Part shown: piece by piece, positions 4,279-43,519 of the stretch
Layout: every line of letters starts with the position of its first letter
Position numbering within the stretch: position 1 is the stretch's first letter
Assembly: GCA_945897075.1 (NCBI GenBank)
Contig: CAMDEX010000017.1
Span: forward strand, 1 to 43,666
Length of the DNA: 43,666 nt
Reading direction: 5' to 3'
Source: Litorilinea aerophila
GTDB lineage: Bacteria > Chloroflexota > Anaerolineae > Caldilineales > Caldilineaceae
Program-made: the position numbers and the translations under genes
The notes under the pieces: model-generated
What the model saw: the letters and a program-made list of their open reading frames with translations, nothing else
The model's database searches: none
Told to the model about the DNA's origin: nothing

Positions 4279-4349
4279 CGAATGCGGAATGCAGAAGTCG
4301 AAATGCGGAATCGGGCGGGCGGCTCACCCATTCGCCATTCGACACACCC
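4279..4349. repeat. Heptamer-phased word array (GAATGCG family) with inverted right arm
   Basis: The words GAATGCG, GAATGCA, GAAGTCG, AAATGCG and GAATCGG follow each other in 7-nt phase. They are followed by ATTCGCC and ATTCGAC, the reverse-complement words, giving an imperfect hairpin. It is one of at least eleven such arrays in the window. Confidence 0.7.
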
Positions 4350-4636
4350 ATATTGGGCAAAGGCATACCGGCAGCCGGATCATCCACGAAAAAGGTGTAC
4401 GTGGCGAAAGCAGCCAGGGCATAGACGACGAGCAAAGTCACACTGGGAGTTGAGTTGGAGCGACAGGTGATGCAGCGTTTCCATCTCGGCCAGCCGCCGC
4501 TGATCTGCGCTGGCCTCTGCCGGATGTCCGGTCTGTTCCCTATCTGGTCTATCCCCGTCGGTGTCCATTAGCGTGTCCATGCCCGAATGGGCACAATCGT
4601 GAATCCATCCTGTCTGTAGAATCCGTCTCCTGATTT
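4350..4636 (-). other. Gene-poor stretch, possible frameshifted small membrane-protein remnant
   Basis: No convincing intact gene is present. On the minus strand one frame (from 4580, starting MDTLMDTDGD) runs to about 4440. Another frame over 4350-4440 encodes a strongly hydrophobic segment (VTLLVVYALAAFATYTFFV). Joined by one frameshift they would make a small protein with one membrane segment. I do not recognise the family, and the hydrophobic run could be chance. Confidence 0.2.
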
Positions 4637-5146
4637 TCAGGTCAATTCCATTGCGTAGAGATGAAAAGCTCCCATCTTATCCACGCACGCTTTCTCGAAA
4701 TACATCCCCATCTTCTTGGCTACCCGCGCCGAAGGCGCATTGGCCGGATCGATCAGGCAGACCAGCCGGGAGAATCCCAATGGCCCGAAGGCGTAGTCGC
4801 GGATGGCCTGGGCCGCTTCGGTTGCCAACCCCTGCCCCCAGTACGCTTTGGCAATCGTATAAGCCACCTCCACCTCATCCACGCCGTCAATTGTCCAGGA
4901 CAGCAGACCGCAGCGCCCAATAAATTGCCCGCTCTCTTTGTGAACTGTCGCCCACAGCCCCAACTCTGGATGCCGAGGATGGCCGTGCTGATGCCATTCC
5001 AGTTCTTGCCTGGCTTCCGCGTAACTGCGCGGCGCGTCGGGAATGTAGCGGGTGATGTCTGGATCGCAATAGAGGGCGTAGAGGCTGTCCAGGTCATCCG
5101 CTGTTTGATGGCGCAGAAGCAGCCGTTCGGTTTCCAGAATTTTCAT
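4637..5146 (-). CDS. GNAT acetyltransferase, RimJ/RimL-like
   Basis: The 169 residues are the usual length of the RimJ/RimL-type GNAT fold. The start (ETERLLLRHQTADD) is the typical first beta strand of this group. The acetyl-CoA-binding region is AYWGQGLATEA (about residues 104-114, Q/RxxGxG/A-like). The end (SARVAKKMGM) is the typical C-terminal helix. It transfers an acetyl group from acetyl-CoA to an unknown amine. It is the last gene of a tight minus-strand cluster, 27 nt after the preceding GNAT gene. Confidence 0.85.
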   Translation of the reverse strand: MKILETERLLLRHQTADDLDSLYALYCDPDITRYIPDAPRSYAEARQELEWHQHGHPRHPELGLWATVHKESGQFIGRCGLLSWTIDGVDEVEVAYTIAKAYWGQGLATEAAQAIRDYAFGPLGFSRLVCLIDPANAPSARVAKKMGMYFEKACVDKMGAFHLYAMELT

Positions 5147-5173
5147 CGGTTTGTTTTCGTTGGTCTGTTCAAT

Positions 5174-5713
5174 TTACCAAATCCGCCCATCAATTTCGAT
5201 GATCAGGAGGCTGTCGAGGTTGAGAGGCGGTGTCTGTTTCAGGCGCAAAACCAGAATGCCCTCCTGCTCCGGCGTAGGCACCAGCCCCTCGTTGCCCCGT
5301 CCAGCCAGGGCACCGCGCCAGCGTTCCCAGCCCAAACGCGCATAAAACCCAATGCGCTCGGTCTCCAGACAGGCGATGGCGTAGTCGGCGATGCTCTGGG
5401 CCAGCGTGCGCATAACTGCGCTGCCGTAACCCTGCCCCTGGAATGTGGGCAGGGTGGCGACCGCATCCACATAGGCCGTCTTGAGCAGCGGCTGGCCCTC
5501 CGGTTGCAGCCAGCGCGTCGTCACCACCGCGTGGCTGACCACTTCGCCGTCCCGGTAGGCGAGGAAGTGGCGTCCGCCGGAAGGAATGTAGGAGAAGAGA
5601 TTACGGAAGTCCTCCTCCTGGTGCGCGGCGATGCAGACGCGGATGATGGCGGCGCGGGTGGCGGCGTCTAGTTTTTCTGTGGGGAATGACCGCACAATCA
5701 CCGTCTCTGTCAT
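5174..5713 (-). CDS. GNAT acetyltransferase resembling the AAC(2') family
   Basis: From the ATG at 5713 the product is 179 residues. That start is preferred over an in-frame upstream one (5797) because it overlaps the previous gene's stop as ATGA. The acetyl-CoA loop is FQGQGYGSAV. The end is diagnostic: GWERWRGALAG, VPTPEQEG and a final IEIDGRIW closely parallel the C-terminus of aminoglycoside 2'-N-acetyltransferases (GW-W-GPL, TPDEDG, DWR-GDVW). Relationship to that family is well supported by pattern. Actual aminoglycoside acetylation is inference, since mycobacterial members may have other physiological substrates. Confidence 0.75.
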   Translation of the reverse strand: MTETVIVRSFPTEKLDAATRAAIIRVCIAAHQEEDFRNLFSYIPSGGRHFLAYRDGEVVSHAVVTTRWLQPEGQPLLKTAYVDAVATLPTFQGQGYGSAVMRTLAQSIADYAIACLETERIGFYARLGWERWRGALAGRGNEGLVPTPEQEGILVLRLKQTPPLNLDSLLIIEIDGRIW

Positions 5714-6327
5714 ATCACATCTTCCCCGTGGATAGGATAAGTAGGCCCGTGGGCGGGATAGACAGTCGTGGCTCCCCGCTCGCGCAGCAGACGCCAACTG
5801 GCTGCCACCACTGCGGGGTCTTCGTGGGCAATGAACATCGGGTGGGTGAGGTCGCCGGTGAAGACTTCGCCCGTATCCAGTAGAAGCGATACGCTGTCGG
5901 GGGAATGGCCGGGGGTGGGCAGAATCTCGCCCGCGATGCCGATCTGTGCCAGCAGCGCCCGGCTCTCGGCGCAGGTGATGACCCGGTTGTCGTGGGTTGT
6001 GATTGCGGTGTAGTTGTCTTCGGGTTTAATCCAGGTTTTCATCAGCGGGATGGCCTCCACTTGCAGGTTCATCACCAGCAGAGGCACACCCGCATTCTTC
6101 AAATCCTGGGCCGCGCCGGCGTGGTCAATGTGATAGTGGGTCGCCAGCCCGTAGCGGATTTCGTGCAGGGGGATGTCCATGCGGCGCAGGTTGGCGGCCA
6201 GTTCACCAAAGCGTCCCGGCCAGCCCAAATCTACCAGCAGGCGGGAAGTGCCCGCGCTGATCACCCAGAAATGGGTGGAGCGGTAACCGACGTTGACGAT
6301 TGTGAGTTTGGGTGTGAGATTAGGCAT
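5710..6327 (-). CDS. MBL-fold metallo-hydrolase
   Basis: The 205-residue single-domain protein carries the metallo-beta-lactamase-fold signature THYHIDHAG (H64, H66, D68, H69), a later GHSPDS histidine, a FTGDL aspartate and a final PAHGPTYPI histidine. This is a complete set for two metal ions. The substrate is unknown; related small proteins include glyoxalase II-like and quorum-lactonase-like enzymes. It overlaps the AAC(2')-like gene by 4 nt and follows the sulfotransferase gene by 14 nt. A decayed copy of this gene's N-terminus lies at 9022-9084. Confidence 0.85.
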   Translation of the reverse strand: MPNLTPKLTIVNVGYRSTHFWVISAGTSRLLVDLGWPGRFGELAANLRRMDIPLHEIRYGLATHYHIDHAGAAQDLKNAGVPLLVMNLQVEAIPLMKTWIKPEDNYTAITTHDNRVITCAESRALLAQIGIAGEILPTPGHSPDSVSLLLDTGEVFTGDLTHPMFIAHEDPAVVAASWRLLRERGATTVYPAHGPTYPIHGEDVI

Positions 6328-6341
6328 AGGAGCAACTTTTC

Positions 6342-7208
6342 TCAGTCGTGAAACATCCAGCTATCCATGGCATAGCCAAAGCTCTCGAAATCGTCCCGGT
6401 AGATTGCATAGACGGTATCGGCCAGTTGCTTGCTGTAGGCGGCGGCCAGGGGAAGCACGGCCGTCGTGTTGACGCGCTCGTCCAGCGAGCCGATCAGCTC
6501 CGGCGGGGCAGCAAAGCGTTGCAGAATCTGTGTAAAATCCTGGGCGAAGTTCTCGACACGCCCGATGCAATCGTAGGCAATCCGGTCGCGATGGAGCGAT
6601 CCGGTCTGGGACTTCCAATGGCCGTCCCGCTCTCCGTCCGCCTGCCCGGCGATGTATCGCACAAAATCGGCAAAACCCACCCGTCCCGGCGTGGCCCCGT
6701 TCGCCGTCGGGTAGCCGGCTGCTTGCCGGATCGCTTCCCGAAAGCCCACATAAGGCGACGTCAAGTCCAGAACCTGGGATTTGTAGGCGGAGAAGAGGCG
6801 GGCGTAGGGGTTGCGCACAAAGGCAAAGCGAAACCAGTCAGGGGAGGTTAGGATTTCCACCCCGTCGGCGCTGGCAAAATCGGCGATGCTGGGCAGGAAA
6901 GCCAGCCCCGGTTCGTCCCGAAAATGGATGCGCATTGGGTCCGGCGGCAGGGGCAGACCTTCGAGTTGCTGCAAAATGAGCTTTGTTTTGCTACAGGCGT
7001 TCTTGGGGATCGCCATACAGAAATAGCGGTGGCGCGGTGAAATCCAGGTGTCGGCCACATTCAGCCCGGCGCTGTCTTCGTCAGGGGGCTGGGTTTTGGC
7101 ATCTTCGATCCAGCGGTAGAGGTCCGTTGTCATTTTTGCTCTTTGCGCATTGCGCGACAAGGCGTCAAATTCTGCCCCCAATCGCTGCGCGGCTGCGTGT
7201 ACGTTCAC
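6342..7208 (-). CDS. Sulfotransferase family 2-like protein
   Basis: The 288-residue protein contains MAIPKNACSKTK (residues about 65-76), the 5'-phosphosulfate loop of PAPS-dependent sulfotransferases. It also contains FVRNPYARLFSAY (about 130-142), the 3'-phosphate-binding segment. In this family the enzyme moves sulfate from PAPS to a carbohydrate or small molecule. There is no signal peptide or membrane segment, so it is cytoplasmic, unlike Golgi members. It lies 16 nt after the GTPase gene and 14 nt before the MBL gene. The acceptor is unknown. An internal ATG at residue 26 is an alternative start. Confidence 0.8.
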   Translation of the reverse strand: MNVHAAAQRLGAEFDALSRNAQRAKMTTDLYRWIEDAKTQPPDEDSAGLNVADTWISPRHRYFCMAIPKNACSKTKLILQQLEGLPLPPDPMRIHFRDEPGLAFLPSIADFASADGVEILTSPDWFRFAFVRNPYARLFSAYKSQVLDLTSPYVGFREAIRQAAGYPTANGATPGRVGFADFVRYIAGQADGERDGHWKSQTGSLHRDRIAYDCIGRVENFAQDFTQILQRFAAPPELIGSLDERVNTTAVLPLAAAYSKQLADTVYAIYRDDFESFGYAMDSWMFHD

Positions 7209-7224
7209 ACATCTACAAAGAAGC

Positions 7225-14451: not shown

Positions 14452-16080
14452 CTACCGCACCCCTGCCATCTCCTGCAGCATATGCCAGTTGGCCAGCCGA
14501 TCCGCCTTGGCGGCCAGCAGCGTGGGGGAGGGATTGCCCTCGCGGTCGAACTGCTTGGCAAAGCGCCCTTCCGAGCGGGCAAAGGTGATGAAGTCAATGA
14601 CCTCGCCCGTCTTCTTGATCGTGTACCAATCCTCGTCCGCGGCCGGATTGCCCTTCAGACTCAGCCGCTCTTTGATCGTCTCGCCTTTGCGCGGGTCATA
14701 GACAAACATCGGGAAGGCCCGGCTGTCCACGGCCAGCTTGGACTGGTAGCGGGCCATATTGTCGGCCACGCCGTGTTCCGGCTGGCAGGTGGTATAGGTG
14801 CTGACGATGGCGGGGCCGTCGAAGGAAGCCGCATCCAGAATCGATTGGTAGAAGTGGTTGGGCACCGCGGCCACCGTCTGCGCCACGAAGGTATTCGGGT
14901 GCATCATCGCAATGCGCCCGATCTCCTTGCGCATCTCTTCCTTGCCCGGATGGGCCGTGCCAAAGGCGTACATCTTGGCTTCCTGGCCGGTGAAGGAGCC
15001 GGTGCTGGTCTGGCCGCCGGTGTTGGAGTAGACCTGCGTATCCAGAATCAGCACTTTGATATTCATCCCGCTGGCCATCATCCGGCTGAGGGATTGGAAG
15101 CCGATGTCGAGCATCGCACCGTCGCCGCCCATTACCCAAAGCTGCTTGTCCTGCCAGCCAAGCTGATCCCAGCGCATGCGGATGCCCATCGCAAAGGCGG
15201 GGCCATTCTCAAAGAGGCTGTTGCTCCAGGGCACGATGTACGGATTGTAAGGGTAGGTGCTGCCGTAGACGGTGTTGCAGCCTGTGCTGGCGGCGATGCC
15301 CACATTCTCCGCGCCGTATTTGTAGCCCAGCGCGGCCAGCCACATACGGATGACCGTCGCCTCGCCGCAGCCGGCGCAGGAACCCGCACCGCCCACGTAG
15401 AGCATCGACTGTTCGGCCAGCATCATATCCACCGCCACCCGGTCGTTGATAAACTCTGCGGGCGTGGCGGGCAAAGAGCGGAAGAAGTTGATGCTCTTCT
15501 GGTACTTGGGAACAGTCGTGTCTTCTTTCGTAATCATCTTTAGCGCGTTGTAGCCCAGGTCGTCACAGGCTTCCACACACTCGGCGCAGCCCTTGCATTT
15601 GGTGGGGTCAATGAAGATGCCAAACTTGCCCGGCATTTTTTTCTGGCGTTCGGGCACTTTGAAGAATTTGTTGGTGATGGCGAACTGGTCGGCCATATAG
15701 AGCCGCTCGTCGTCGTTTTCGATGGCGGCCAAGTGGTTGTCCAACTCCCCCACATAAATCGCCTTGCCCAAAATCGCCGTATCCGGGCATTGGGTGACAC
15801 AGGTCATACAACCGGTGCAGTTCTCCTGGATGAATTCGGGAATCTCCGGCGCAATGTAGCTGAAGTCGCGGAACGCGCCCGTGCCCGCCGGGATGATCGA
15901 GCGGGCCAGCCCCACATCTGCGGTCAGTTCTTCCTCGCCCGTGCCCTCGTTGTAGCCGCTGAGCACCCGGTCGAAGAAATCCTGCACGTCAATAATCGAA
16001 GAGTCATAGCCGCCATGCCCGTTGCCGTTGGCGGTCTTGCTCAATTTGGTAATGTCGATGGTGTTGGTTGTGACTGCCAC
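14452..16080 (-). CDS. porB: Pyruvate:ferredoxin oxidoreductase, ferredoxin-beta fusion subunit
   Basis: The 542-residue protein joins a delta-type 2[4Fe-4S] ferredoxin domain with CxxCxxCxxxCP (CTGCMTCVTQCP, about 85-96) and CKGCAECVEAC (about 136-146) to the thiamine-diphosphate-binding beta domain. The ThDP region has CAGCGEAT, the GGDGAMLDIG start and a VYSNTGGQTS end, the standard GDG...N motif. It oxidises pyruvate to acetyl-CoA, reducing ferredoxin. It corresponds to the C-terminal half of single-chain NifJ. It is the second of two co-directional genes, 109 nt after the alpha/gamma subunit. A word-repeat hairpin sits in that gap. Confidence 0.93.
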   Translation of the reverse strand: MAVTTNTIDITKLSKTANGNGHGGYDSSIIDVQDFFDRVLSGYNEGTGEEELTADVGLARSIIPAGTGAFRDFSYIAPEIPEFIQENCTGCMTCVTQCPDTAILGKAIYVGELDNHLAAIENDDERLYMADQFAITNKFFKVPERQKKMPGKFGIFIDPTKCKGCAECVEACDDLGYNALKMITKEDTTVPKYQKSINFFRSLPATPAEFINDRVAVDMMLAEQSMLYVGGAGSCAGCGEATVIRMWLAALGYKYGAENVGIAASTGCNTVYGSTYPYNPYIVPWSNSLFENGPAFAMGIRMRWDQLGWQDKQLWVMGGDGAMLDIGFQSLSRMMASGMNIKVLILDTQVYSNTGGQTSTGSFTGQEAKMYAFGTAHPGKEEMRKEIGRIAMMHPNTFVAQTVAAVPNHFYQSILDAASFDGPAIVSTYTTCQPEHGVADNMARYQSKLAVDSRAFPMFVYDPRKGETIKERLSLKGNPAADEDWYTIKKTGEVIDFITFARSEGRFAKQFDREGNPSPTLLAAKADRLANWHMLQEMAGVR

Positions 16081-16100
16081 GTGTAGTCTACCTTTCTAAG

Positions 16101-16176
16101 AAGTAATCAGTAAACAGTTACCAGTAATCAGTCAGAAGTGTCGATTCGCCCACTGATGACTGTTTACTGATAACTG
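16101..16176. repeat. Heptamer word hairpin (AGTAATC/AGTAAAC family) between the POR genes
   Basis: Left array: AGTAATC, AGTAAAC, AGTTACC, AGTAATC, AGTCAGA in strict 7-nt phase. The right arm contains the complement. ATCAGTAAACAGT (16106-16118) pairs perfectly with 16159-16171. It lies inside the presumed POR operon and could affect relative expression of the two subunits. Confidence 0.8.
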
Positions 16177-16189
16177 CTGAACCGTTGAA

Positions 16190-19116: not shown

Positions 19117-19165
19117 TTGACGATTGGACACGCCAAATCTCCAATCTCCCAATCTCCAATCTTCT
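19117..19165. repeat. Heptamer word array (AATCTCC family) after mazF
   Basis: GATTGAC and GATTGGA on the left and AATCTCC words (one slipped to 8 nt) on the right form inverted arms immediately after the mazF stop. The array runs up to the next promoter (19166). Confidence 0.65.
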
Positions 19166-19220: not shown

Positions 19221-19342
19221 CTCTTATCACGAGAGGTGGAGGGAACGGCCCTACGAAGCCTCGGCAACCGGCAGCGCAAACCAGCAATGGTTTTGCCTGT
19301 GTCAGGTGCCAATTCCGTCGGTGTGATACACCGAAAGATGAG
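19221..19342 (+). promoter_or_regulatory. SAM-I (S-box) riboswitch aptamer
   Basis: The core elements occur in order: CTCTTATC, GAGGTGGAGGGA, GGCCCTACGAAGCC, GGCAACCGG, GGTGCCAATTCC and GAAAGATGAG. These match the S-box consensus almost letter for letter. With SAM bound, the downstream terminator (19366-19402) should form and stop transcription of the PLP enzyme gene. This places that enzyme in methionine or cysteine metabolism. Confidence 0.96.
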
Positions 19343-19365
19343 ATGCGCGCCAGATGTTGCCCGCA

Positions 19366-19402
19366 CCCCTCTTGCCCGTATCCACCGGCAGAGGGGTTTT
19401 TC
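19366..19402 (+). terminator. Riboswitch-controlled rho-independent terminator
   Basis: CCCCTCT-TGCC pairs with GGCAGAGGGG (10 bp with one bulge), followed by TTTTT. It sits 24 nt after the aptamer and 190 nt before the gene, as expected of an S-box expression platform. Confidence 0.9.
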
Positions 19403-19575
19403 GTGGTGCGTGGTGCGTGAACAAACGTTTGAAAATGTTGCGTTGTGCGCACTCATCGAAACGTGAAATAGGCCGAACGATCTCACATTTCATACCCCCA
19501 CCGACCAAACCCATAAAGCGCCTAATCGTCACTTAATTGTTCACGCACCACGCACCACGCACTACGCACTCATCA
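19402..19575. repeat. Word hairpin (GCACCAC family) inside the riboswitch leader
   Basis: The left arm (19402-19423) and right arm (19538-19559) are perfect 22-nt complements made of GCACCAC heptamers, separated by 114 nt. The right array continues with GCACTAC to about 19572. The left arm overlaps the terminator's T-run, so only read-through transcripts contain the hairpin. Confidence 0.85.
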
Positions 19576-19589: not shown

Positions 19590-20795
19590 ATGACCAGAAA
19601 CCTCCCCACCGGCGTTTCTCCCCAAACCGCAGCCGTCCACGCCGGCGAGGCGCGCTACGTGGCGTATCACAGCCTGACCGTGCCGATTGTGCAGACCGCC
19701 ACCTACACCTTCGAGAATACAGAGGCGCTCATCGCCTATCAGGAAGACAAAATGTTCTGGGACGTGCCGGAGCGGGTGGAATACGGGCGCTATGGCAACC
19801 CGACGGTCCATGCAGCCGAGGCCAAACTGGCCAGCCTGGAAGGGGCCGAGGATGCTTTGCTCGTCTCCAGCGGAATGGCCGCCATCACCACCACACTGAT
19901 GATTCTGCTCTCCCAGGGCGATCACTTCCTCATCACCGAGGACTGTTACCGGCGCACGCGCATCTTCTGCAATTCCTTCCTGGCCCGCTTCGGCATCGAG
20001 TGTACAACCGTCAAGCCCGGCGACTACGACGGCATGGAAGCCGCCATCCGCCCCAACACAAAGCTGATCTTCTCCGAATCCCCCACCAATCCCTTTCTGC
20101 GTTGCCTGGACTATCCCCGGCTGGTGGAGATTGCCAAACGCCACAACCTGAAAACGGTGATTGACGGCACATTTGGCACGCCGGTCAATATCCGCCCGCT
20201 GGGGTACGGCGTCGATCTGGTCGTCCACAGCGTGACCAAATACCTGGCCGGCCACAACGACCTGTTGGCTGGCTGTGTGGTGGGCAGCTTTGCCATGACC
20301 AGCGTGCTGCGTCAGGCCCAGGGCGTCATCGGCGCGGTGGTAGACCCCCACACGGCCTTCCTCATCCTACGCGGGTTGAAGACGCTGGGGCTGCGCATGG
20401 CCCAGCACAACGCCAACGGGATGGCGATAGCCCGCTTTCTGGAGAGCCATCCGAAAATTCGTCGGGTCTGGTATCCGGGGCTGGAGAGCCACCCGGATCA
20501 CAGCCTGGCCGCGGCGTCTATGCGCGGCTTCGGCGGGGTGGTCAGTTTTGAGGTGGAGAGCGACGGCGCGGGGGCCAGCCGTTTCATCGACGCCTGCCGC
20601 ATCCCCCACATCGCGCCCAGCCTGGGCGGGGTGGAGAGCCTGATCGAGCAGGTGTACATCGTCAGCTACTACGACACCGCGCCCGAAGATCGCCTGGCCC
20701 TGGGCATCCGCGACGAGATGGTGCGTCTGGCCCTGGGCGTGGAAGATACGGACGATCTCATCTCTGATTTGGCCCAGGCGTTGGAAAAGGTGTAG
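19590..20795 (+). CDS. Cys/Met-metabolism PLP-dependent enzyme
   Basis: The 401-residue protein is of the cystathionine gamma-synthase / cystathionine lyase / methionine gamma-lyase / O-acylhomoserine sulfhydrylase superfamily. The PLP lysine is K217 in [17 protein letters not shown]. Other signatures are [20 protein letters not shown] and the SESPTNPF active-site segment. The exact reaction cannot be read from motifs. The S-box riboswitch upstream supports a methionine-synthetic or salvage role, with production turned off by SAM. The Shine-Dalgarno GGAGA lies 8 nt before the ATG. The stop codon touches a word array. Confidence 0.9.
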
Positions 20796-20905
20796 GGTAT
20801 TGGGTATTGGGTATTTCGTCCGGACGATAGAGGGGTGTCAGTAAATAGTGAGCAGTACATCCATTGATTGTTATCGCTTTTCTCTGCGTCTTTGCGGCTC
20901 TGCGG
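20795..20905. repeat. Three adjacent word arrays between the PLP enzyme and the lipoprotein gene
   Basis: GGGTATT three times (20795-20815) starts at the stop codon. TCGTCCGGACGA (20816-20827) is self-complementary. CAGTAAATAGTGAGCAGTAC (20839-20858) belongs to the same word family as 16101 and 39337. CTCTGCG/TTTGCGG words cover 20881-20905. At least three word families sit side by side. Confidence 0.7.
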
Positions 20906-22083: not shown

Positions 22084-22471
22084 ATGTCAACGATTCTGAT
22101 AGAAGATGGCTTTCGTATGACTTTGCCGGAAGAATTGCGCAGTACACTATGTGTGGGTGATGAGCTTCTATAGTTTTACAGGTAATTATCGGTAGGGGCG
22201 TTTGCTGGCTGCGCCCGGCACACAAGAGATGGACGCAGCCAGCAGCGCCCCTACAGAGAAAATCTTTATCTGTAAAACTATAGCAAGCCGGGACAACAAC
22301 GGGCGGATTATTCTCACAATCAAGTCGGAGATGCAGCAGGCGCTGGACGAGGCATTTGGCCTTTGGGCCGATCGCACAGATGTCCCAAAGGACGGCGTCG
22401 AATATGTCAATCGAATTCGCAGTGATGACCGCTTTGATGAGATTAGGAAACGATTGTATGAAACTGCTTGA
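22084..22471 (+). pseudogene. AbrB/MazE-type antitoxin gene split by a MITE
   Basis: The 5' part (22084-22173) encodes MSTILIEDGFRMTLPEELRS and continues TLCVGDELL, then a stop inside the insertion. The 3' part resumes at 22283 with ASRDNNGRIILTIKSEM and runs to 22471. Removing 22171-22282 joins GDELL to ASRDNNGR in frame and gives a normal 91-residue SpoVT-AbrB-type antitoxin. The gene overlaps the PIN gene (22458) by 14 nt. Confidence 0.9.
22171..22280. mobile_element. 110-bp palindromic MITE with TA target duplication
   Basis: The element begins TAGTTTTACAG and ends with the exact complement CTGTAAAACTA. It is flanked by TA on both sides (22169-22170 and 22281-22282). Inside, GTAGGGGCG and GCTGGCTGCG words pair with their complements, so the whole element folds into one long hairpin. 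TA duplication and short terminal repeats point to mobilisation by an IS630/Tc1-mariner-type transposase. No transposase is encoded. Confidence 0.9.
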
Positions 22472-24923: not shown

Positions 24924-25095
24924 ATGAGTCAGTCGCTCTTTCTCAAAGGAGTGCTGATCGGCTTTTCCATCGCCGCGCCCGTGGGACAGATTGGGGCGCT
25001 TTGCATTCGCTGCTCGATTGCCGAGGGACGGCTCTCCGGTTTTGTATCGGGTCTGGGCGCGGCCAGCGCGGATGCGGTCTATGGAGCTATCAGAA
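24924..25095 (+). pseudogene. LysE-type transporter, 5' fragment
   Basis: MSQSLFLKGVLIGFSIAAPV and GQIGALCIRCSIAEGR, followed by LSGFVSGLGAASADAVYGAI, are the first helix and loop of LysE-type amino-acid exporters. After about 55 residues the similarity stops and the McrC-like gene begins (ATG at 25081, different frame). No C-terminal LysE part was found after 28668, so the insertion or associated deletion removed it. Confidence 0.82.
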
Positions 25096-26637
25096 GTGTT
25101 GACGCCTATCACCCATCAAACACTGCTTGAGCGACTTAATGCCGCGCCTATCCCTCTCGATTCGGCGAATTTTTGCGCGCCAGCAACGCATGTATTGGTA
25201 GAGTGGCAAAAATATTGGCTTGAATTGCCTAAGTGCTATTTCCTTCGCGTCGGCACAGAGAACCTGCGGCCAATAGCTGGCTCATTGTTTTCTCTGCAGT
25301 TTGAAAATCGGCTTGGCCTTAGTCGTATTCAACCATTTGACGCGGACGGTCATGCATTGACCGATCCGCTTTATGTGGAGGTCGTGAGCCAAAAATTTCC
25401 ATCTTTTGCGGCGCACATTAGTTTTTATCACTCTCTATTGGATGATCTGTTTGCTCGTGGAGTTCATCTTCCCTTTCACGTTAGCAGTTCCACTAGTCAA
25501 CGGGTCGGAGAAGCACTACGCCCACCCACACCTCTGTTTGTATACCACTTTCTCCGTCAGCATGGCCATGCCCTGAGCAATGCAGGCGATATCATCCAGG
25601 CGCAACCTTTGCGGCGATTAACCGATCAGCCGCGTCAAGTTCCCCTGGGCGCAGTCTCTGATGTAGATGTAGATGTATTACTTCAGATTGTGGAGACGCC
25701 AGAGGAATTGACACGTGCGCCGCATCTGTCGATTGCCAACTACATGAATGGCTACGTTCCTCAACGCGTCTGGCAGCGTCTGTCAGTTGAAACTCTTGAT
25801 ACACCAGAGAACCGATTTGTACGCTATTTTTTGGAAATCATACATCAAGAGGCAGGCAATCTATTAGGTGAGCCGTGGTGGCAATCTGTCCCCGAACAAA
25901 CCCAACAACAGATTATAGAAATTATCGGACGGATCGGAAATCATTTACGGCATCCTATGTATAGTGAAATTGGTCGGATGACTCACTTACCGTTTCAATC
26001 CCGCGTATTGTTGAGACGGGAAGGCTACCGACAACTCCGTGAACTCTGGCAACTCTTTCAGGATGCGCGGAGACCGTTATTTCAAGCTTTGCAGGAGGCG
26101 ATCGAGGCACGCGATGTGGCTCAGTTGTACGAAATTTGGGCATTTTTCGCGTTGGTAGAAGAAATAAGTGCAGCGTTGAAGATCGATCCGGTTATCAACT
26201 TGTCCACAACGGTAGAGGAAGGACTACAGCACGGAGCTATAGCTCATTTTGGGCCGAAGTACTGTCTGGCATACAACTGTTGGAGAATGGGTTATTCTGG
26301 GCGTTTACACCCTGATTTTATGTGGCTCGTAGATGGTGTGCCCGAAGTGATTCTGGATGCCAAATTTCGTTTGGATCGCCCCCCTTCTGGGGGTGATCCA
26401 AACGGCACTACGCCGGAAGCGAAGGCAAGGGTAGATGATTTGTATAAGATGCACGCCTACCGAGATGCACTAGGGGTGCGGGCCGCAATAGTGGTCTATC
26501 CTGGTGATCGAACTTTGTTCTACGACATTGCAGCGCAGGAGTCCAACGATAGAACTATAGAAGATATTCTGATGGGTTCTTTTGCCGGTATAGGATCAAT
26601 CTGTCTCAAACCGCAGAATTGTTCAAGCGATGTTTAA
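25081..26637 (+). CDS. McrC-like DUF2357 / PD-(D/E)xK nuclease
   Basis: The 518-residue protein has a DUF2357-type N-terminal region. Its C-terminal nuclease has E351 (YEIWAFF), D412 (RLHPDFMW), D426-A-K428 (VILDAKFR) and a following YKMHAYRDAL motif, together a PD-(D/E)xK set. In McrBC systems the nuclease subunit is driven by an AAA+ translocase to cut modified or foreign DNA. Here the nuclease gene comes first and the AAA+ gene 3 nt later. Base composition is more AT-rich than the neighbouring genes, and a LysE gene is cut at the left edge, both signs of recent acquisition. Confidence 0.85.
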   Translation: MELSEVLTPITHQTLLERLNAAPIPLDSANFCAPATHVLVEWQKYWLELPKCYFLRVGTENLRPIAGSLFSLQFENRLGLSRIQPFDADGHALTDPLYVEVVSQKFPSFAAHISFYHSLLDDLFARGVHLPFHVSSSTSQRVGEALRPPTPLFVYHFLRQHGHALSNAGDIIQAQPLRRLTDQPRQVPLGAVSDVDVDVLLQIVETPEELTRAPHLSIANYMNGYVPQRVWQRLSVETLDTPENRFVRYFLEIIHQEAGNLLGEPWWQSVPEQTQQQIIEIIGRIGNHLRHPMYSEIGRMTHLPFQSRVLLRREGYRQLRELWQLFQDARRPLFQALQEAIEARDVAQLYEIWAFFALVEEISAALKIDPVINLSTTVEEGLQHGAIAHFGPKYCLAYNCWRMGYSGRLHPDFMWLVDGVPEVILDAKFRLDRPPSGGDPNGTTPEAKARVDDLYKMHAYRDALGVRAAIVVYPGDRTLFYDIAAQESNDRTIEDILMGSFAGIGSICLKPQNCSSDV

Positions 26638-26640
26638 AAT

Positions 26641-28668
26641 ATGAGCAATACTCGATCAGCACTATATTTTTATCATAAAGAGTATGAGCATCGGTTTCTT
26701 CCAGGCAATAACTGCGAACAATTCATAGCGAACTTGCTCGCCGCCTTGCAAGATGCAGGTGCTGTCGAAGTTGCGAAAACCGTGGGCCACATCGCGCGCG
26801 GGCTAATCCAAGCCAACTGCATTGGGACTAGCAAAGGACGAGGGAAGAAGGCGGACGTATCTTGGCTTCCTGATAACCCACAATTACCAGACTTGCAGCA
26901 CTTTGGACATCTTTCAGCCCTCGAACATGTGAAGGTGTATATAGCAAAATTGCAGAATGATGGGTATACGGATGAGGCCGAAATAGCGGAAGTTTTCCTA
27001 GAAGCAGCGGTCGCAAGTAAGTGTATTCACGGAACATTCGTCAGTACACGCAAAGAACCACAAGGTTTATCGTCTACTGAACAGAAACCCCAACAAGAAA
27101 GGAAACTGTCGATGCTTGATATTCTCAGGAATCAGACGAGTAGAGATGGACTTTACTTCACCGATTGGCAACTTGCCACCTTTTACACCGCCCTGCAAGC
27201 CAAAGGGTTCGTGATTCTCAGCGGGATTAGCGGCACGGGAAAATCAAAACTAGCGCAACATTTTGCAGGAATTTTGCCACGCCCTTTAGGTAATCTCGAA
27301 GTAATAGAAGATGAAGAATACGTGGCAGTAACCATTCAGCCTTATATGCTAAAGTATAGCCGAATGATTGTTCCACGGAATGCTGTTCGTCTGTTTACTC
27401 CGCCAGCGCCTGGAGAACAGATAGAAGTGAAAGTCGATTACGATGGACACTCCCAGAAATGTCGATTCAAGCATGCTGCTTATACGGGTACTTCCTATAT
27501 GCAGTTGCTTCTACCCGGAAAGATAGGGCAACGGTTTAAGCAAAACGTTTCTGTCGGCGATTCATTAGGTTTGGAACCTATTGTTGACGGAGATACTGAC
27601 GTCCTAATTGGCTTCCGTCTGTTTGATCCAGAAACTGAGTCAAACGTTGAAGCAACTGAAGGCAACTGCTGGCTCTTTCTCTCTGTACGTCCAGACTGGC
27701 GAGACAGCAAATCGCTGTTGGGATACTTCAACCCCATCACTCAATCCTACGAATGGACTGATTTCCTACGTTTCTTGTTGAAAGCCGAACAGGATTATCG
27801 GAAGAACAGTTCATCTGCATTGGCTTGGTTTGTGATACTGGATGAAATGAATTTGGCTTATGTCGAGTACTACTTTGCTGACCTACTCAGTGTGATGGAG
27901 TCGGGTCGAGACGCAGAAGGGTGGAGTCGGGAAGCATTGCGTTTTCCGCGCCCAATCCAGATAGGGTTAGATGCCGATGTGCCGCCAGTTCACATCCATT
28001 TGCCACCCAATTTCTACGTTGTCGGTACAGTCAATGTAGATGAGACGACGCATGCTTTCAGCCCAAAGGTGCTGGATCGAGCCTTCACGTTAGAACTCAA
28101 CGAAGTCGATTTCACACAATATCCCCGACCAATGGCAAACCTTGCTTCCGATCTGTTGACATCTGATCAACGACAATCTCTCTTAGCGGATTTTAGCCGT
28201 AACGGGCGTTTTGTGTATCGAGATAAGCAAGAAATTGCGTCTTTTGTTGGGCTATACCCAAACGTCCGTACTCGACTGCAAACGTTAAATGAACTGTTGC
28301 GCCAGTCCAATCATCATTTTGGCTATCGGGTCTTTGACGAAATTGTCGAGTTTCTGATTGCGGCTGACGAAAATGGAATGTTCAGCGCGATTGAAGACGA
28401 TCCTTTTGATACAGCCGTTCTAATGAAAGTGTTACCTAAATTTCATGGCAGTCGTAATGCGTTGCAACCCGCCTTACAACGATTATTGGCGTGGTGCGCG
28501 TCTCCAGACGAACCACCAGTTCAAAAGCTCACTGAAAAGCTAAATTCGTCTGAGATCAGTCAACTGGATACCATTTACCGAGAGTTCAATTGGTCGCTAC
28601 CCCAGACGGCGCAACGGATATGGCAAATGCTCTATGAACTTAGAGTGAATGGCTTCACTGCATTTTAA
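26641..28668 (+). CDS. McrB-like AAA+ ATPase/GTPase with inserted domain
   Basis: The 675-residue protein has a helical N-terminal region (1-150) of unknown fold. Walker A is GISGTGKS (195-202), Walker B VILDEMN (398-404), sensor-like VGTVNVDETTH (461-471), and an arginine-finger-like VLDRAF follows. SVRPDWRDSKSLLGYFNP is typical of the McrB branch. Between Walker A and that block there is an extra beta-rich segment of about 115 residues (221-340), including IVPRNAVRLFTPP and VSVGDSLGLEP, resembling B3/EcoRII-N-type DNA-binding folds (inference). It is predicted to power the nuclease encoded just upstream. Confidence 0.85.
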   Translation: MSNTRSALYFYHKEYEHRFLPGNNCEQFIANLLAALQDAGAVEVAKTVGHIARGLIQANCIGTSKGRGKKADVSWLPDNPQLPDLQHFGHLSALEHVKVYIAKLQNDGYTDEAEIAEVFLEAAVASKCIHGTFVSTRKEPQGLSSTEQKPQQERKLSMLDILRNQTSRDGLYFTDWQLATFYTALQAKGFVILSGISGTGKSKLAQHFAGILPRPLGNLEVIEDEEYVAVTIQPYMLKYSRMIVPRNAVRLFTPPAPGEQIEVKVDYDGHSQKCRFKHAAYTGTSYMQLLLPGKIGQRFKQNVSVGDSLGLEPIVDGDTDVLIGFRLFDPETESNVEATEGNCWLFLSVRPDWRDSKSLLGYFNPITQSYEWTDFLRFLLKAEQDYRKNSSSALAWFVILDEMNLAYVEYYFADLLSVMESGRDAEGWSREALRFPRPIQIGLDADVPPVHIHLPPNFYVVGTVNVDETTHAFSPKVLDRAFTLELNEVDFTQYPRPMANLASDLLTSDQRQSLLADFSRNGRFVYRDKQEIASFVGLYPNVRTRLQTLNELLRQSNHHFGYRVFDEIVEFLIAADENGMFSAIEDDPFDTAVLMKVLPKFHGSRNALQPALQRLLAWCASPDEPPVQKLTEKLNSSEISQLDTIYREFNWSLPQTAQRIWQMLYELRVNGFTAF

Positions 28669-30634: not shown

Positions 30635-30643
30635 CGGGGGTAG

Positions 30644-30696
30644 GATGATGGGATGATGGGATTTTGCCTGCAACTTCATCATCCCATCATCCCATC
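30644..30696. repeat. Word hairpin (GATGATGG family) between convergent genes
   Basis: The 8-nt words GATGATGG on the left are complemented on the right. 30647-30662 pairs perfectly with 30681-30696 (16 bp). It sits between the stop at 30634 (+) and the stop at 30687 (-), overlapping the latter. It may serve as a two-way terminator. Confidence 0.8.
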
Positions 30697-32366: not shown

Positions 32367-32714
32367 GGTATTTCGTATTGTCCGGTAAGTGGTGTGATAG
32401 GGCGGATGGAGTTGAGGAGTGAAGCGTGAAACGTGAAACGTGAAAGTCAGTGATGTGAATTCACGTTTCACGCTTCACTCCTCACGTTTCACTCCTCACG
32501 TTTCACGCTTCATTTTTTATCTTTCCATCGCTCCCTCAAAATCACTACTTACTCCGTACCAGCGCAAGATCGACGGTATATGCGTTAGTCGTTCTCCACT
32601 ACACGTAGTGCGTGGTGCGTGGACTAATCGTCACTACTGCTTGACGCACTACGCACTACGCACCACGCCGACTTTTAACTTGTGGCTTCGCCACCGTATG
32701 AAATACCCAATACG
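32367..32714. repeat. Composite of nested word hairpins (three word families)
   Basis: Outer words TTGGGTATTTCGTA (about 32364) and their complement (about 32694-32714) bracket two inner structures. One is a perfect 24-bp stem made of GAAACGT/CACGTTT heptamers (32414-32437 with 32460-32483, then a second run of CACGTTT/CACTCCT/CACGCTT words to about 32512). The other is a GTGCGTG/CGCACTA pair (about 32604-32670). No gene is evident in 32358-32719. Confidence 0.8.
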
Positions 32715-34123: not shown

Positions 34124-34267
34124 ACGAGCTACCTCCTCTACACGGTTGAATGGTTCGGCAGGACAGAGGCAAATCTCTGCCTGTTTCTGGGTTCCAGTCT
34201 ACCGGAAAGATGTGAAGGACGCAGGGAGGAAGTGTTAAGAGATCGCAATAATGGGGCTGGGATTGGC

Positions 34268-34405
34268 GACTGGGGGCTGGGGACTGGGGACTGGGGACTG
34301 GGGACTGGGAAAGGCCGGTCGCTGACGCTCCCGGTACGGATCCTGCCACCTGCCACCTGCCACCTGCCACCTGCAACTTGCAACCTGCAACCTTCCACCT
34401 GCCCC
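34268..34405. repeat. GGGGACT array (G-quadruplex-prone) and CACCTGC array
   Basis: GGGGACT repeats four times with two degenerate flanking copies (34268-34312). Separately, CACCTGC words repeat nine or so times with drift to AACTTGC and AACCTTC (34341-34403). Here the two arrays are not complements of each other, unlike other loci. The G array has five runs of at least four G with 3-nt loops. The gap 34124-34408 contains no gene. Confidence 0.85.
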
Positions 34406-34408: not shown

Positions 34409-35107
34409 TCACCCCTGAAATTTGTAGCCGACGCCGCGCACGGTGAGGATGTGCTGCGGGTTGGCAGAGTCATCTTCGATTTTCGTGCGCAGGTGGCGGA
34501 TGTGGACGTCAATCGTGCGTTCGCCGCCGATGTCACTCTCGTAGCCCCACACGGCTTCGATGAGCGTGGCCCGGCTGATGGGCCGGTCGGCGTGCGCGGC
34601 CAGGTGGTGGAGCAGACGAAATTCGGTGGGGGTCAATTCGACGGCGCTGCCCGCTTTGCGCACGACCAGCCGGGCCGGGTCAATCTCCAGATCGCCGAAG
34701 CGCAGGGGGACGCTTTCGCCGTTGGCGGCCAGCTCGCCGTAGGCCCGGCGCAGGAGGGCACGGATGCGCGAGGTCACTTCGCGCAGACTGTAGGGTTTGA
34801 CAACGTAATCATCCGCGCCCAATTCCAGCCCCAGCACTTTGTCCACCTCCTCATCGCGTGCCGTCAACATCAAGACCGGCTGGCGAAAGCCCTCGGCGCG
34901 CAGGGCGCGGCAGACGTCGTAGCCGCTGGTGTCGGGCAGGCGGATGTCCAGTGTAATCAGTGCCGGATTCTCGGCGCGCAGAAGTTGCAGCGCCTCCTGG
35001 CCCGTGCGCGCCCAGAAGACCTGGAAGCCCTCGGCCTGCAAGCCGTACTCCAGCCCCCGGGCCACAGCCCGCTCGTCTTCAACAATCAGAATGCGTTCGC
35101 CGGTCAT
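34409..35107 (-). CDS. OmpR/PhoB-family response regulator
   Basis: From the ATG at 35107 the product is 232 residues; the start overlaps the upstream GNAT stop as ATGA. The receiver domain has acidic pocket ED and phospho-acceptor D54 (LITLDIRLPD), with conserved T and K (ADDYVVKPY). The winged-helix output domain has LTPTEFRLLHHLAAHADRPI, RTIDVHIRHLRTKIEDD and VRGVGYKF. It controls transcription of unknown targets, likely with the sensor kinase at 30687-32357. Confidence 0.95.
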   Translation of the reverse strand: MTGERILIVEDERAVARGLEYGLQAEGFQVFWARTGQEALQLLRAENPALITLDIRLPDTSGYDVCRALRAEGFRQPVLMLTARDEEVDKVLGLELGADDYVVKPYSLREVTSRIRALLRRAYGELAANGESVPLRFGDLEIDPARLVVRKAGSAVELTPTEFRLLHHLAAHADRPISRATLIEAVWGYESDIGGERTIDVHIRHLRTKIEDDSANPQHILTVRGVGYKFQG

Positions 35108-39336: not shown

Positions 39337-39398
39337 AGTAAACAGTGAGCAGTCATCGGTAGACGGACATAGCCCCTGATGACTGCTCACTGTTTACT
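39337..39398. repeat. Perfect word hairpin (GTGAGCA/GTAAACA) between convergent genes
   Basis: 39337-39357 and 39378-39398 are perfect 21-bp complements built of heptamers GTAAACA, GTGAGCA, GTCATCG, with a 20-nt loop. It fills the gap between two converging genes and can terminate both. Confidence 0.88.
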
Positions 39399-41152: not shown

Positions 41153-41191
41153 AGGGCTGCTCCTGTAGAATAGTAATAACCCTATTGAACC

Positions 41192-41231: not shown

Positions 41232-41267
41232 TTCAGTCGTAGGACGGCACAGCATGCCGTTCTACCT

Positions 41268-42017
41268 TTATGCGGCTACATTGATAGAGGCGGTGTCTTC
41301 TAGCCGCACCCAACCCCGGCGCAGGGCCAGGAGAGCCGCCTGGGTGCGGTCATTTACAGCCAGCTTGCGCAAAATACTGCTCATGTGGTTCTTCACTGTC
41401 TGGCGGCTGATGCCCAGCGCATGGGCGATCTCTTTGTTGCTGGCCCCCCGTGTGATGAATTGAAGAATCTCCATCTCTCTGGGGCTGAGGGGGACAAACA
41501 TCTCATCGGGCGATTCTCCAAAGATGGCCAGATCATCAAACTGGCGCAGCATCCAGCGGGCCACTTGTGGCCGGTTCATCACTTCATCGCCGATGACATA
41601 GTTGTTGTGGGCTACGGCGCGCACAGCGGGAATCAGTTCACTGGGCAGGACATCTTTGGTGTAATAGGCTGCGGCACCGGCACGCAGAGCATGGAACAAC
41701 TGCTCGTCGTCGTGGTAGGCTGTCAAAATGATAATCCCAATCGTGCTGCCCATCGGGCTGTTTTTGATCTCCCGGGTCGCCTGCAAACCATTCTTGTTGG
41801 GCAGATTGATGTCCATCAGAACCACATCTGGCTGCAATTCAAGTGCCCGATCCACGGCAAGCGCGCCATCGTCCACCTCGGCTATCACCCGCAAATCAGT
41901 CTCCCCTTCCAGAACTCTACGCAGACCCTGTCCAAAGAGCGGGTGATCTTCCACGATCATTATACGGACAGCATCTGTGTCGCTGTGACCGTTTCGAAAT
42001 TGATTGATGTTCGCCAT
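41268..42017 (-). CDS. NarL/FixJ-family response regulator
   Basis: The 249-residue protein has a receiver domain (RIMIVEDHPLFGQGL; phospho-acceptor D69 in VVLMDINLPNKNG) and a LuxR-type HTH near 177-236 (LSPREMEILQFITRGASNKE, ISRQTVKNHMSSILRKL). No kinase is adjacent, so it is an orphan in this window. A terminator follows its stop and a promoter lies upstream (42163-42192). Confidence 0.95.
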   Translation of the reverse strand: MANINQFRNGHSDTDAVRIMIVEDHPLFGQGLRRVLEGETDLRVIAEVDDGALAVDRALELQPDVVLMDINLPNKNGLQATREIKNSPMGSTIGIIILTAYHDDEQLFHALRAGAAAYYTKDVLPSELIPAVRAVAHNNYVIGDEVMNRPQVARWMLRQFDDLAIFGESPDEMFVPLSPREMEILQFITRGASNKEIAHALGISRQTVKNHMSSILRKLAVNDRTQAALLALRRGWVRLEDTASINVAA

Positions 42018-42162
42018 AGCAGCCTCTCATAATCTCTAGAGTTTTCGTCCAATTTGACGATCCTCTACGCCAAATGGCGTAGATACGATTGTTTGCCTAC
42101 CACTGAATATTGCCGGAATCAATCCTACTTTCTCATCTCATCCCATATTCCATGTGTAAAAA

Positions 42163-42192
42163 AGTATAGCATTTCTTCATCAGACTCTTCAA
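42163..42192 (-). promoter_or_regulatory. Promoter of the NarL-type regulator
   Basis: On the minus strand TTGAAG (42187-42192), 18-nt spacer, TATACT (42163-42168). The leader to the ATG at 42017 is about 140 nt and holds a TCTACGCC/GGCGTAGA hairpin near 42064-42083. Confidence 0.65.
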
Positions 42193-42239
42193 TATAGGAG
42201 TACACGCCAATATGCGTATTAATGGACGGATAGGTATTC

Positions 42240-42312
42240 GTGTCCTATCTACACTTCTGGGTCTACACGATTCTATGTGTCCTATCTACACTTTGCGTCT
42301 ACACAATTCTAC
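42240..42312. repeat. 37-bp tandem repeat, two copies
   Basis: GTGTCCTATCTACACTT begins both units (42240 and 42277). The second halves (GGGTCTACACGATTCTAT versus GCGTCTACACAATTCTAC) differ at a few positions. TCTACAC and ATTCTAC words recur to 42360. The array lies between the divergent promoters at 42163 and 42390. Confidence 0.85.
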
Positions 42313-42389
42313 GTAGAGCCACGCTACAGCCATCCGCTCCGCCGTGGCATACGATTCTACGATTCTGAGAATCAGACACCCTGGGCTGG

Positions 42390-42419
42390 TTGCGACACTT
42401 TCCTTATCAATGCTATAAT
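42390..42419 (+). promoter_or_regulatory. Promoter of the zinc-ribbon protein gene
   Basis: TTGCGA (42390-42395), 18-nt spacer, perfect TATAAT (42414-42419), 54 nt before the GTG start. Confidence 0.75.
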
Positions 42420-42472
42420 TCAAGCAGACACTTTGCCATACCCAAATGTTCGCACATTTTCCAGGAGCCTTT

Positions 42473-43174
42473 GTGAACCCAATCGCTGATTTATACCGTC
42501 TACAGGAAATTGACACGATGTGGGACAAGATACGGCGGCGCATCCTGCAACTGCAAAAGACGACCGGTGGTTCGCCGGAGTTGGTCGAAATGCGTACACG
42601 AACGCGAGCCACCGAGACGGAGTTGCAAAAAGTGCGTCAAGAACAGCGGGATGCCGATGGGGAATCCGGTTCTCTCGCCGTACGGATCAAAGAATCCGAA
42701 AGCCTGCTGATGGGGGGGCAGGTGCGCAACCCCAAGGAATTGGAGGCATTGCAGGCCAGTGTGGAGTCTATGCGTCGGCACAAAGGCGCGTTGGATGATC
42801 GCAGTGTGGAGGCAATGGTCAAGGCCGATGAGATTGGGCAGCGCTTTGCCAAGCAGACCAGCAGCCTGAACAGCCAGGAGGCAGAGTGGCAGATCAAACA
42901 GCAGGCAGTTGATGAAGAATTGCAAAAGCGCAAAAAAGAGTATGTCTATCTGAAGAATATGCGGGAGGAGCTCGTCAAGAGTATTGACGGCAAGATGTTG
43001 GAACAGTATGAGTATTTACGCGGGCGCAAGAATGGCATTGCGGTCGCCAAGCTGGAGGACGGCTCCTGCACGGCCTGCCACATGCAGATACCTGTGGGGC
43101 TGATCGGCAGCGTGCGCCGTGGCGACGAGCTGGTCGCCTGCGCCGCGTGTGGCCGTATCCTCTTTGCCGCCTAA
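42473..43174 (+). CDS. Coiled-coil protein with C4 zinc ribbon (COG1579/CT398-like)
   Basis: I choose the GTG at 42473, with AGGAG 5 nt upstream, giving 233 residues. A long coiled coil (about 10-175, rich in Glu/Lys/Gln heptads) includes the family block QVRNPKELEALQASVESMRR. The C-terminal zinc ribbon has CTACHMQIP and CAACGRILF (two CxxC). COG1579 proteins are widespread. CT398 binds RNA polymerase sigma54 and secretion components in Chlamydia, but the general role is unknown. Confidence 0.92.
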   Translation: MNPIADLYRLQEIDTMWDKIRRRILQLQKTTGGSPELVEMRTRTRATETELQKVRQEQRDADGESGSLAVRIKESESLLMGGQVRNPKELEALQASVESMRRHKGALDDRSVEAMVKADEIGQRFAKQTSSLNSQEAEWQIKQQAVDEELQKRKKEYVYLKNMREELVKSIDGKMLEQYEYLRGRKNGIAVAKLEDGSCTACHMQIPVGLIGSVRRGDELVACAACGRILFAA

Positions 43175-43265
43175 CGACGACGGACGACGGACGACGGACT
43201 GCCGACTGCTGATGATGCGATCTTTGCGTTCCGCCGTCCGCCGTCCTCTGTCCGCCGTCTGCGCT
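43175..43265. repeat. Heptamer word array (GACGACG family) after the zinc-ribbon gene
   Basis: GACGACG words follow the stop directly, drifting to GACTGCC and GACTGCT. Words such as CCGCCGT and CTCTGTC form the right arm (43230-43262), giving imperfect inverted arms. Confidence 0.75.
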
Positions 43266-43519
43266 CTACTCCCTCTCCCCGCTGGAAATCTGTGGCAAAT
43301 AGCCCCGCCACGCAAAGCGAACAGCCACTTCTTCAGTGCGCAGGCCAACGTCGTTGTGCAGGTGTAGCAGCAAAACACCTCTGCTCCCGTTGCGCAGCAT
43401 CCCATTGCGATCCGCCACAAGCGCAATGGTTGTCCCCGGCAGATCGTAAAAGAGAGGCAGATCGGCCAGCCCATTCTGCACCCGTATGCCCGCAGCCAAG
43501 AGGTCGTAGAAGAGTGAGC
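43266..43519 (-). pseudogene. 3' end of an unknown gene truncated by an insertion sequence
   Basis: The minus-strand frame encodes SSLFYDLLAAGIRVQNGLAD, then VALVADRNG-like text and GVLLLHLHNDVGLRTEEV, a coherent protein C-terminus of unknown family. The coherent sequence begins exactly at the left end of the insertion sequence (about 43520). The frame continues open into the element but reads as nonsense there. The 5' part would lie beyond the element. Confidence 0.65.

What the first reader, a model, noticed from the sequence alone, without database searches (positions are those of the whole stretch)
4279..43266. Heptanucleotide-phased word arrays forming hairpins at many gene borders
At least eleven intergenic sites (about 4279, 16101, 19117, 19402, 20795, 29164, 30644, 32367, 34268, 39337, 43175) carry degenerate tandem words, mostly in exact 7-nt phase (8-10 nt at two sites). 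At most sites an array is followed by its reverse complement, with perfect stems of 13, 16, 21, 22, 23 and 24 bp. The sequence differs between sites while the phasing and inverted layout recur, so what is conserved is the format. Six arrays begin within 10 nt of a stop codon. Cyanobacterial short tandemly repeated repetitive (STRR) heptamers are the nearest known parallel. How arms stay complementary while words drift suggests copying of one arm from the other.
Basis: partly seen in the sequence, partly recalled or inferred. Interest (0 to 1): 0.8.

Follow-up and report, generated by a model that had tools for sequence, protein, structure and literature searches.

The report
Rewritten hairpin repeats between bacterial genes
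In this Chloroflexota bacterium many gaps between genes carry runs of 7- or 8-letter words that often form hairpins, and related species often keep a hairpin in the same gap but spell it with different words, which hints at a copying process that renews the two arms together.

Summary
In the window plus twenty 20-kb stretches of its genome (444 kb), period-7 (81) and period-8 (28) arrays far exceed other periods and a shuffle; intergenic DNA alone agrees. 34 of 106 arrays have a perfect reverse-complement arm of 12 bp or more within 200 bp, against 4 of 106 with swapped flanks. The organism belongs to Caldilineaceae. Words are not private to sites: a limited vocabulary recurs, including the known GGGGAYT heptamer. 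At orthologous borders congeners often keep an array, in at least 10 of 32 cases with a different word. Arms change together, and the 5' arm is purine-rich in 79 of 84 array hairpins, with or without GGG. Sense-strand mismatches show no G.U preference and no U-tract follows, so RNA-level selection or intrinsic termination is not supported. Best reading, not proven: slippage plus fold-back template switching in DNA, tolerated between a stop codon and the next gene's signals. It is a multi-word variant of heptamer repeats described in Xanthomonas, Nostoc and Beggiatoaceae.

The parts
4280..4311 (.). weak heptamer array (GAATGCG type), no stem found
   Evidence: 10 of 14 matches at lag 7
16102..16175 (.). 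ACTG-word hairpin (24 pairs, 3 mismatches, loop 26) between two pyruvate:ferredoxin oxidoreductase genes; at the same border G002 has GTGAAAC words and G001 a GGATATT hairpin
19118..19162 (.). GATTGGA / AATCTCC words, no ungapped stem
19402..19559 (.). GTGCGTG hairpin, 23 bp stem, loop 112 holding GTGAAA-like words; begins right after a T-run downstream of the SAM riboswitch; G002 and G005 have TTGCGTA words here
20793..20820 (.). GGGTATT array overlapping a stop codon, no stem in this genome
29162..29325 (.). hairpin of loose 9-10 nt words (GCGGATT type), 44-nt arms with 3 mismatches, starting at a called stop
30643..30692 (.). GGATGATG 8-mer hairpin, 16 bp, between convergent genes; G001 has an ACTG-word hairpin here
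32413..32484 (.). GTGAAAC hairpin, 25 bp stem, loop 22
32550..32714 (.). dispersed element of about 160 bp holding a GTGCGTG hairpin (32604-32660); 15 further whole or partial copies inspected; array length 17, 24 or 31 nt in the 9 of 14 loci where it could be measured
34259..34309 (.). GGGGACT array
34341..34403 (.). CCTGCCA array ending near the stop of the minus-strand gene 34409-35107; a different word from its neighbour array
39337..39398 (.). AGTAAACAGTGAGCAGTCATC hairpin, 21 bp, between convergent genes
43175..43259 (.). ACGGACG and TCCGCCG arrays, imperfect hairpin, starting at a called stop

Best explanation
These are hairpins that are rewritten at DNA level. A 7-8 nt word is multiplied by in-phase slippage; when the purine-rich strand is made, the nascent strand folds back and is copied, which lays down a reverse-complement arm, and the same fold-back can later re-copy one arm from the other. 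Words spread between sites, partly inside larger dispersed elements. The hairpins persist where they do least harm, between a stop codon and the promoter or ribosome-binding region of the next gene, so a border tends to stay occupied while its words are replaced. Shown: period, arms, polarity, 7-nt unit changes, border retention with word change in part of the cases, co-variation. Inferred: fold-back template switching as the cause, tolerance rather than function as the reason for the position, and the route of word spread.
For: Period 7/8 excess. Array length in copies of one element 17, 24 or 31 nt in 9 of 14 loci measurable. In 20 pairs of alignable hairpins at orthologous borders: 30 compensated double changes, 2 uncompensated doubles, 29 singles in 374 pair columns (two of the 20 pairs, with 4 of the 30, are palindromes without word arrays). 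An arm's own partner is its best complement among same-word arms in 28 of 70 hairpins, 11.3 expected (13 of 83 dropped for too few comparisons). 5' arm purine-rich in 79 of 84 array hairpins, 38 of 41 in this genome alone, 45 of 49 with no GGG or CCC in the arm. PMC8794818 (abstract and passages seen) holds that template switching can make and mend perfect stems and bias arm composition. Loops match in inverted orientation by 7 nt or more in 4 of 48 same-border pairs against 37 of 2400 control pairs. Sense-strand mismatches: 28 G.U, 42 A.C. 43 of 59 tandem-gene array hairpins start within 20 nt of the stop, 27 expected under uniform placement.
Against: Slippage and fold-back do not explain why one word occurs at many sites; a dispersal step is needed. 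The co-variation count is conditioned on a hairpin in both genomes, pairs are not independent, and some may be separate insertions, which mimic compensation. In 42 of 70 hairpins the own partner is not the best complement. Only 26 of 84 array hairpins are perfect, against 79 of 124 other palindromes, so arm correction is not complete. Other palindromes lean purine-rich too, 77 to 39. The asymmetry in PMC8794818 is G-C over C-G and U-A over A-U; here the 5' arm has more A than T (0.305, 0.191), which fits only the first half. The loop signal comes from three borders, one of them not a word hairpin. Border retention (32 of 75 pairs against 4 of 57) is also what selection would give.
Confidence: 0.5

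Rival explanations
1. Selected RNA hairpins at mRNA 3' ends (stability or termination). Cells need a stem after the stop codon and any word will do, so sequence turns over while pairing is kept by selection.
For: Position at stop codons, border retention, compensated changes.
Against: 28 G.U against 42 A.C mismatches on the sense strand, two-sided p 0.12; no U-tract on the sense side (7 of 59 hairpins with 5 or more T in 9 nt, 7 of 59 on the antisense side); 19 of 59 begin before the end of the upstream gene, where a terminating ribosome would sit; arrays also lie between divergent genes (15).
Confidence: 0.22
2. REP- or MITE-like mobile hairpins moved by a transposase such as a Y1 (RAYT) enzyme, each border hit independently.
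For: A 160-bp dispersed element carries a GTGCGTG hairpin at the window and 15 other loci inspected. Seven Y1_Tnp matches in the genome; genera g8 and g16 have neither Y1 matches nor arrays in the 56 kb seen, all of it one orthologous region. Word arrays occur within 3 of the 7 Y1 loci of 1.6-2.8 kb.
Against: 4 of 7 Y1 loci hold fixed-sequence palindromes unrelated to the words; only one has word arrays close by on the side of the gene, and about half a chance array per locus is expected from the general density. Congener G003 has no Y1 match (74% complete) but ACTG-word array matches. I saw no shared end or tag among word hairpins by eye; no systematic search for one was run.
Confidence: 0.17
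3. G-quadruplex elements, as discussed for GGGGAYT and GGGNATC heptamers.
For: GGGGATT and its near words are the commonest arrays.
Against: 49 of 84 array hairpins have no GGG or CCC in the arm and show the same polarity, 45 to 4.
Confidence: 0.04
4. Chance, assembly or binning artefact of one draft genome.
For: The genome is a draft of 397 contigs with 8.77% estimated contamination.
Against: Excess over shuffles; arrays in four congeners and G020, though G005 has only 2 of period 7 and 4 of period 8 in 133 kb.
Confidence: 0.01

Closest known systems
GGGNATC / GGGGA(C/T)T heptamer repeats of Xanthomonas and Nostoc (PMC4692102)
   Same: Intergenic heptamer arrays, single or as inverted pairs (70 and 75 cases in two Xanthomonas), G-rich on the coding strand within 50 bp of the stop, some overlapping it, and on the non-coding strand near the next start; [quoted passage not shown]
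   Different: That paper follows one word type per genome with quadruplexes in view; here 47 words share the layout among array hairpins, 49 of 84 lack GGG/CCC arms, period 8 is frequent, and orthologous borders can swap words.
Cyanobacterial STRR heptamers
   Same: Tandem intergenic heptamers including the GGGGAYT word (STRR word list recalled, no call).
   Different: Original STRR papers not seen; PMC4692102 reports only a few inverted pairs in Nostoc PCC 7120 (passage).
TAACTGA direct repeats of Beggiatoaceae (PMC4679880)
   Same: One heptamer at many intergenic sites; in Cyanothece strains small differences mostly in 7-nt steps; mixed heptamers in Microcystis (abstract and section 10 seen). 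ACTGATT-type words here are close to it.
   Different: In BOGUAY most lie just upstream of start codons and all but one set are direct repeats.
REP/RAYT systems
   Same: Intergenic hairpins in many copies (REP features partly recalled; PMC3733652 seen as listing only).
   Different: REPs keep a fixed sequence; this genome has such palindromes at 4 of 7 Y1 loci, distinct from the word hairpins.
Hairpins made and mended by replication template switching (PMC8794818)
   Same: Perfect stems, multi-base compensated changes, loop inversion and arm asymmetry are its footprints.
   Different: Described there for rRNA and microRNA genes; its A/U asymmetry is opposite to the A over T bias here.

Membership tests
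bacterial heptamer repeats (STRR type) | tandem heptamers far above chance | tested here: met
bacterial heptamer repeats (STRR type) | intergenic location | tested here: met
   80 of 106 arrays outside called genes; 26 fall in called ORFs of a crude caller and were not checked one by one
bacterial heptamer repeats (STRR type) | a word shared with described families | tested here: met
   GGGGAYT three times in a row: 188 overlapping matches in the genome
Xanthomonas/Nostoc G-rich repeats | strand polarity relative to stop and next start | tested here: met
   (purine-rich rather than G-rich)
Xanthomonas/Nostoc G-rich repeats | G-tract words able to form quadruplexes | tested here: not met
   49 of 84 array hairpins without GGG or CCC in the arm
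REP/RAYT | fixed palindrome sequence beside a Y1 gene | tested here: not met
   other palindromes at 4 of 7 Y1 loci, word arrays within 3 of 7
intrinsic terminators | U-tract after the stem on the transcribed strand | tested here: not met
   7 of 59 sense, 7 of 59 antisense
template-switch hairpins | arm-to-arm copying in one step | tested here: inconclusive
   no within-species data
mobile elements | empty sites and target duplications | not tested
   congeners are mostly 75-90% identical at these borders, too far for clean empty sites

The most novel reading that the evidence does not exclude
A word-independent hairpin-writing process acts at gene borders of this lineage: what is inherited at a border is the layout (purine arm, loop, pyrimidine arm, 7-8 nt phase), while the letters are overwritten within a genus, so that the hairpin is a renewable structure rather than a conserved sequence, and quadruplex or single-word explanations of heptamer repeats elsewhere describe special cases of it.
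Probability: 0.35. Interest if true: 0.78.

Novelty: new variant of a known kind. Interest (0 to 1): 0.56.

Why it matters
The role of bacterial heptamer repeats is still called unresolved in PMC4692102. A genome in which many unrelated words share one layout separates what depends on the word (quadruplex, protein site) from what depends on the layout, and related species with different words at the same border make arm copying directly testable.

Tried and rejected
G-quadruplex as the common cause: disfavoured, words without GGG behave alike. Intrinsic terminator: no U-tract. RNA-level selection seen through wobble pairs: not seen. Y1/RAYT as the mover: mixed evidence, see rivals. Phylum-wide pattern search: apart from this genome it drew none of the same family, so it says nothing on the family; 7 of 300 others had 1 to 5 matches, and the reversed control pattern also matched in some genomes. 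Gene calls come from my own codon-usage script. Congener stretches were fetched for synteny with own stretches, three of them picked as array-rich. Border pairs whose anchors ended more than 60 nt from the gene end were dropped. Of 32 double-positive pairs, 16 share a same or near word, 10 differ, 6 have no word on one side; some of the 10, such as AATATCCC and AATCCCC, may still be related. Hairpins with unequal position (over 60 nt apart) were left out of the loop test.
Full report
What was checked. The eleven sites were read and scored. Six of 11 hold an array passing the strict threshold (five of period 7, one of period 8); 16101 is somewhat looser, 29164 has a loose 9-10 nt phase, and 4279, 19117 and 39337 are weak or mixed. 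Six of 11 have an ungapped stem (16, 21, 23, 25 and 25 perfect pairs, and 24 pairs with 3 mismatches). At 34268 the two arrays are different words; at 4279, 19117 and 20795 no ungapped stem was found.

Is it more than chance? The genome was not available as a file, so I sampled the first 20 kb of 20 other contigs, 443,666 bases with the window, of 6.38 Mb. Arrays with at least 13 of 14 matches at lag p: 81 for p=7, 28 for p=8; p=4,5,6,9,10,11,12,13 give 2,1,7,3,0,0,4,1, and lags 14 and 16 are multiples. In called intergenic DNA (230 segments, 64.5 kb) the counts are 53 and 22 against means of 0.05 and 0.2 in 20 Markov shuffles; hairpins of score 14 or more, 84 against 0. 34 of 106 arrays have a perfect reverse-complement match of 12 or more within 200 bp, against 4 of 106 with flanks of another array and 0 of 106 with shuffled flanks.

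The words. They are not private to a site. GGGGATT/GGGGACT, GTGCGTG, GTGAAAC, GCAGACC, CCTGCCA, AATTGTG, ACTGATT, TTGCGTA and GGGTATT types recur; GGGGAYT three times in a row has 188 overlapping matches in the genome. GTGCGTR arrays also occur in a Caldilineaceae record, other Anaerolineae and scattered records of other phyla (stopped at its limit). The record Caldilineaceae bacterium ACE_CHL9 (L190) gives the same contig number, coordinates and identity as G020, which one search lists in the family of this genome; so the window is placed in Caldilineaceae.

Neighbourhood. Of 59 array hairpins between genes of one direction, 43 start within 20 nt of the upstream stop (27 expected under uniform placement, maximum 39 in 5000 draws) and 19 begin before the called end of the gene. 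At one border, read by eye, a promoter-like stretch of the next gene is alike in five genomes while the hairpin before it differs.

Orthologous borders. Stretches of G001, G002, G005 and G006 were fetched. Border 16080-16189 has ACTG words here, in G006 and, decayed, in G005, GTGAAAC words in G002 and a GGATATT hairpin in G001. Border L002:1042-1147 has GGAAGGGA words here, a 25-bp stem of other words in G005, AGGGTGAC-like words in G006 and G002 (25-bp stem in G002), and a 28-bp GGTATTGGATATT stem in G001. In 132 border pairs (50 borders, window and four own stretches) a relative has an array or array hairpin in 32 of 75 cases when this genome has one and in 4 of 57 when it has none; shuffling within genome and residual length gives a mean of 21.5 and a maximum of 30 of 5000. 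Collapsed to borders: 18 of 26 against 3 of 24. Of the 32, 16 share a same or near word, 10 differ, 6 have no word on one side. So loss is frequent too: 43 of 75 pairs have no array in the relative.

Arms. In 20 pairs of alignable hairpins there are 30 compensated double changes, 2 uncompensated doubles and 29 singles. This is conditioned on a hairpin in both genomes, includes two pairs of palindromes without words, and pairs share genomes. Against other arms of the same word, the own partner is the best complement in 28 of 70 cases, 11.3 expected. Loops match in inverted orientation in 4 of 48 same-border pairs against 37 of 2400 controls, at three borders, one without words. Copies of a dispersed element differ by exact 7-nt steps in the array where measurable, 9 of 14 loci. 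Against arm correction: 26 of 84 array hairpins are perfect, 79 of 124 other palindromes are.

Polarity. The 5' arm is purine-rich in 79 of 84 array hairpins (38 of 41 in this genome alone), with or without GGG; by G over C it is 68 to 10. The 84 include orthologous copies. Other palindromes lean the same way, 77 to 39. Lone arrays between tandem genes follow the rule in part: purine on the sense strand 19 times nearer the stop and 2 nearer the next start, pyrimidine 11 and 13 (Fisher p 0.002). PMC4692102 reports the same layout for G-rich words in Xanthomonas and Nostoc. Here it holds for words without G-tracts. PMC8794818 offers template switching as a source of arm asymmetry, but its A/U bias runs the other way.

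Function tests. On the sense strand 28 G.U and 42 A.C mismatches (63 hairpins) give no sign of RNA-level selection; there is no U-tract bias. Y1 transposase matches number seven in this genome; fixed-sequence palindromes lie at 4 of 7 of these loci and word arrays within 3 of 7. Genera g8 and g16 lack both Y1 matches and arrays in 56 kb of one orthologous region, while G003 has array matches and no Y1 match.

Conclusion. The finding is a real, genome-wide, multi-word form of bacterial heptamer repeats. The best account is slippage plus fold-back template switching with tolerance at 3' gene borders (0.5). A selected RNA hairpin (0.22) and a mobile hairpin (0.17) remain open. Prior description was looked for; among the rows listed (listings are capped) I saw no report on such arrays in Chloroflexota or on word replacement at orthologous borders. 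The library is open-access only.

Noticed in passing
window 19221-19344: SAM riboswitch (RF00162). A T-run downstream is directly followed by the GTGCGTG array; in G002 and G005 TTGCGTA words and in G001 degenerate words follow the same T-run; G006 and G020 show none right there.
   Followed up: partly
L309, L311, L312, L313 (own), L317 (G005): Y1 transposase loci with repeated fixed palindromes (CCTTCCGGGAAGCGGC, AAAAACTGAGTTTCT, GATTCCCGGAATC, TGTGCGGTTGCAAACCGCA types): apparent REP/RAYT families separate from the word hairpins.
   Followed up: partly
window 22164-22285: Dispersed element with inverted ends CTATAGTTTTACAG and an inner palindrome, several copies in this genome and G006; looks like a MITE.
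   Followed up: no
window 24991-28668: DUF2357/PDDEXK_7 gene followed by a gene with a weak, below-cut-off AAA_5 match; possibly a McrBC-like defence pair (recalled, not tested).
   Followed up: no
L007:12514-12575 and L008:3994-4055: Perfect 31-bp palindromes without a loop.
   Followed up: no
L006:17085-17153, L007:15489-15559, L007:17015-17090: A recurring 26-28 bp hairpin of 8-mer words (AACCACAAAGACACAAAG type) that by eye keeps its sequence better than other word hairpins.
   Followed up: no
window 42240-42311: Two tandem copies of a 37-bp unit in an intergenic stretch, not part of the word arrays.
   Followed up: no
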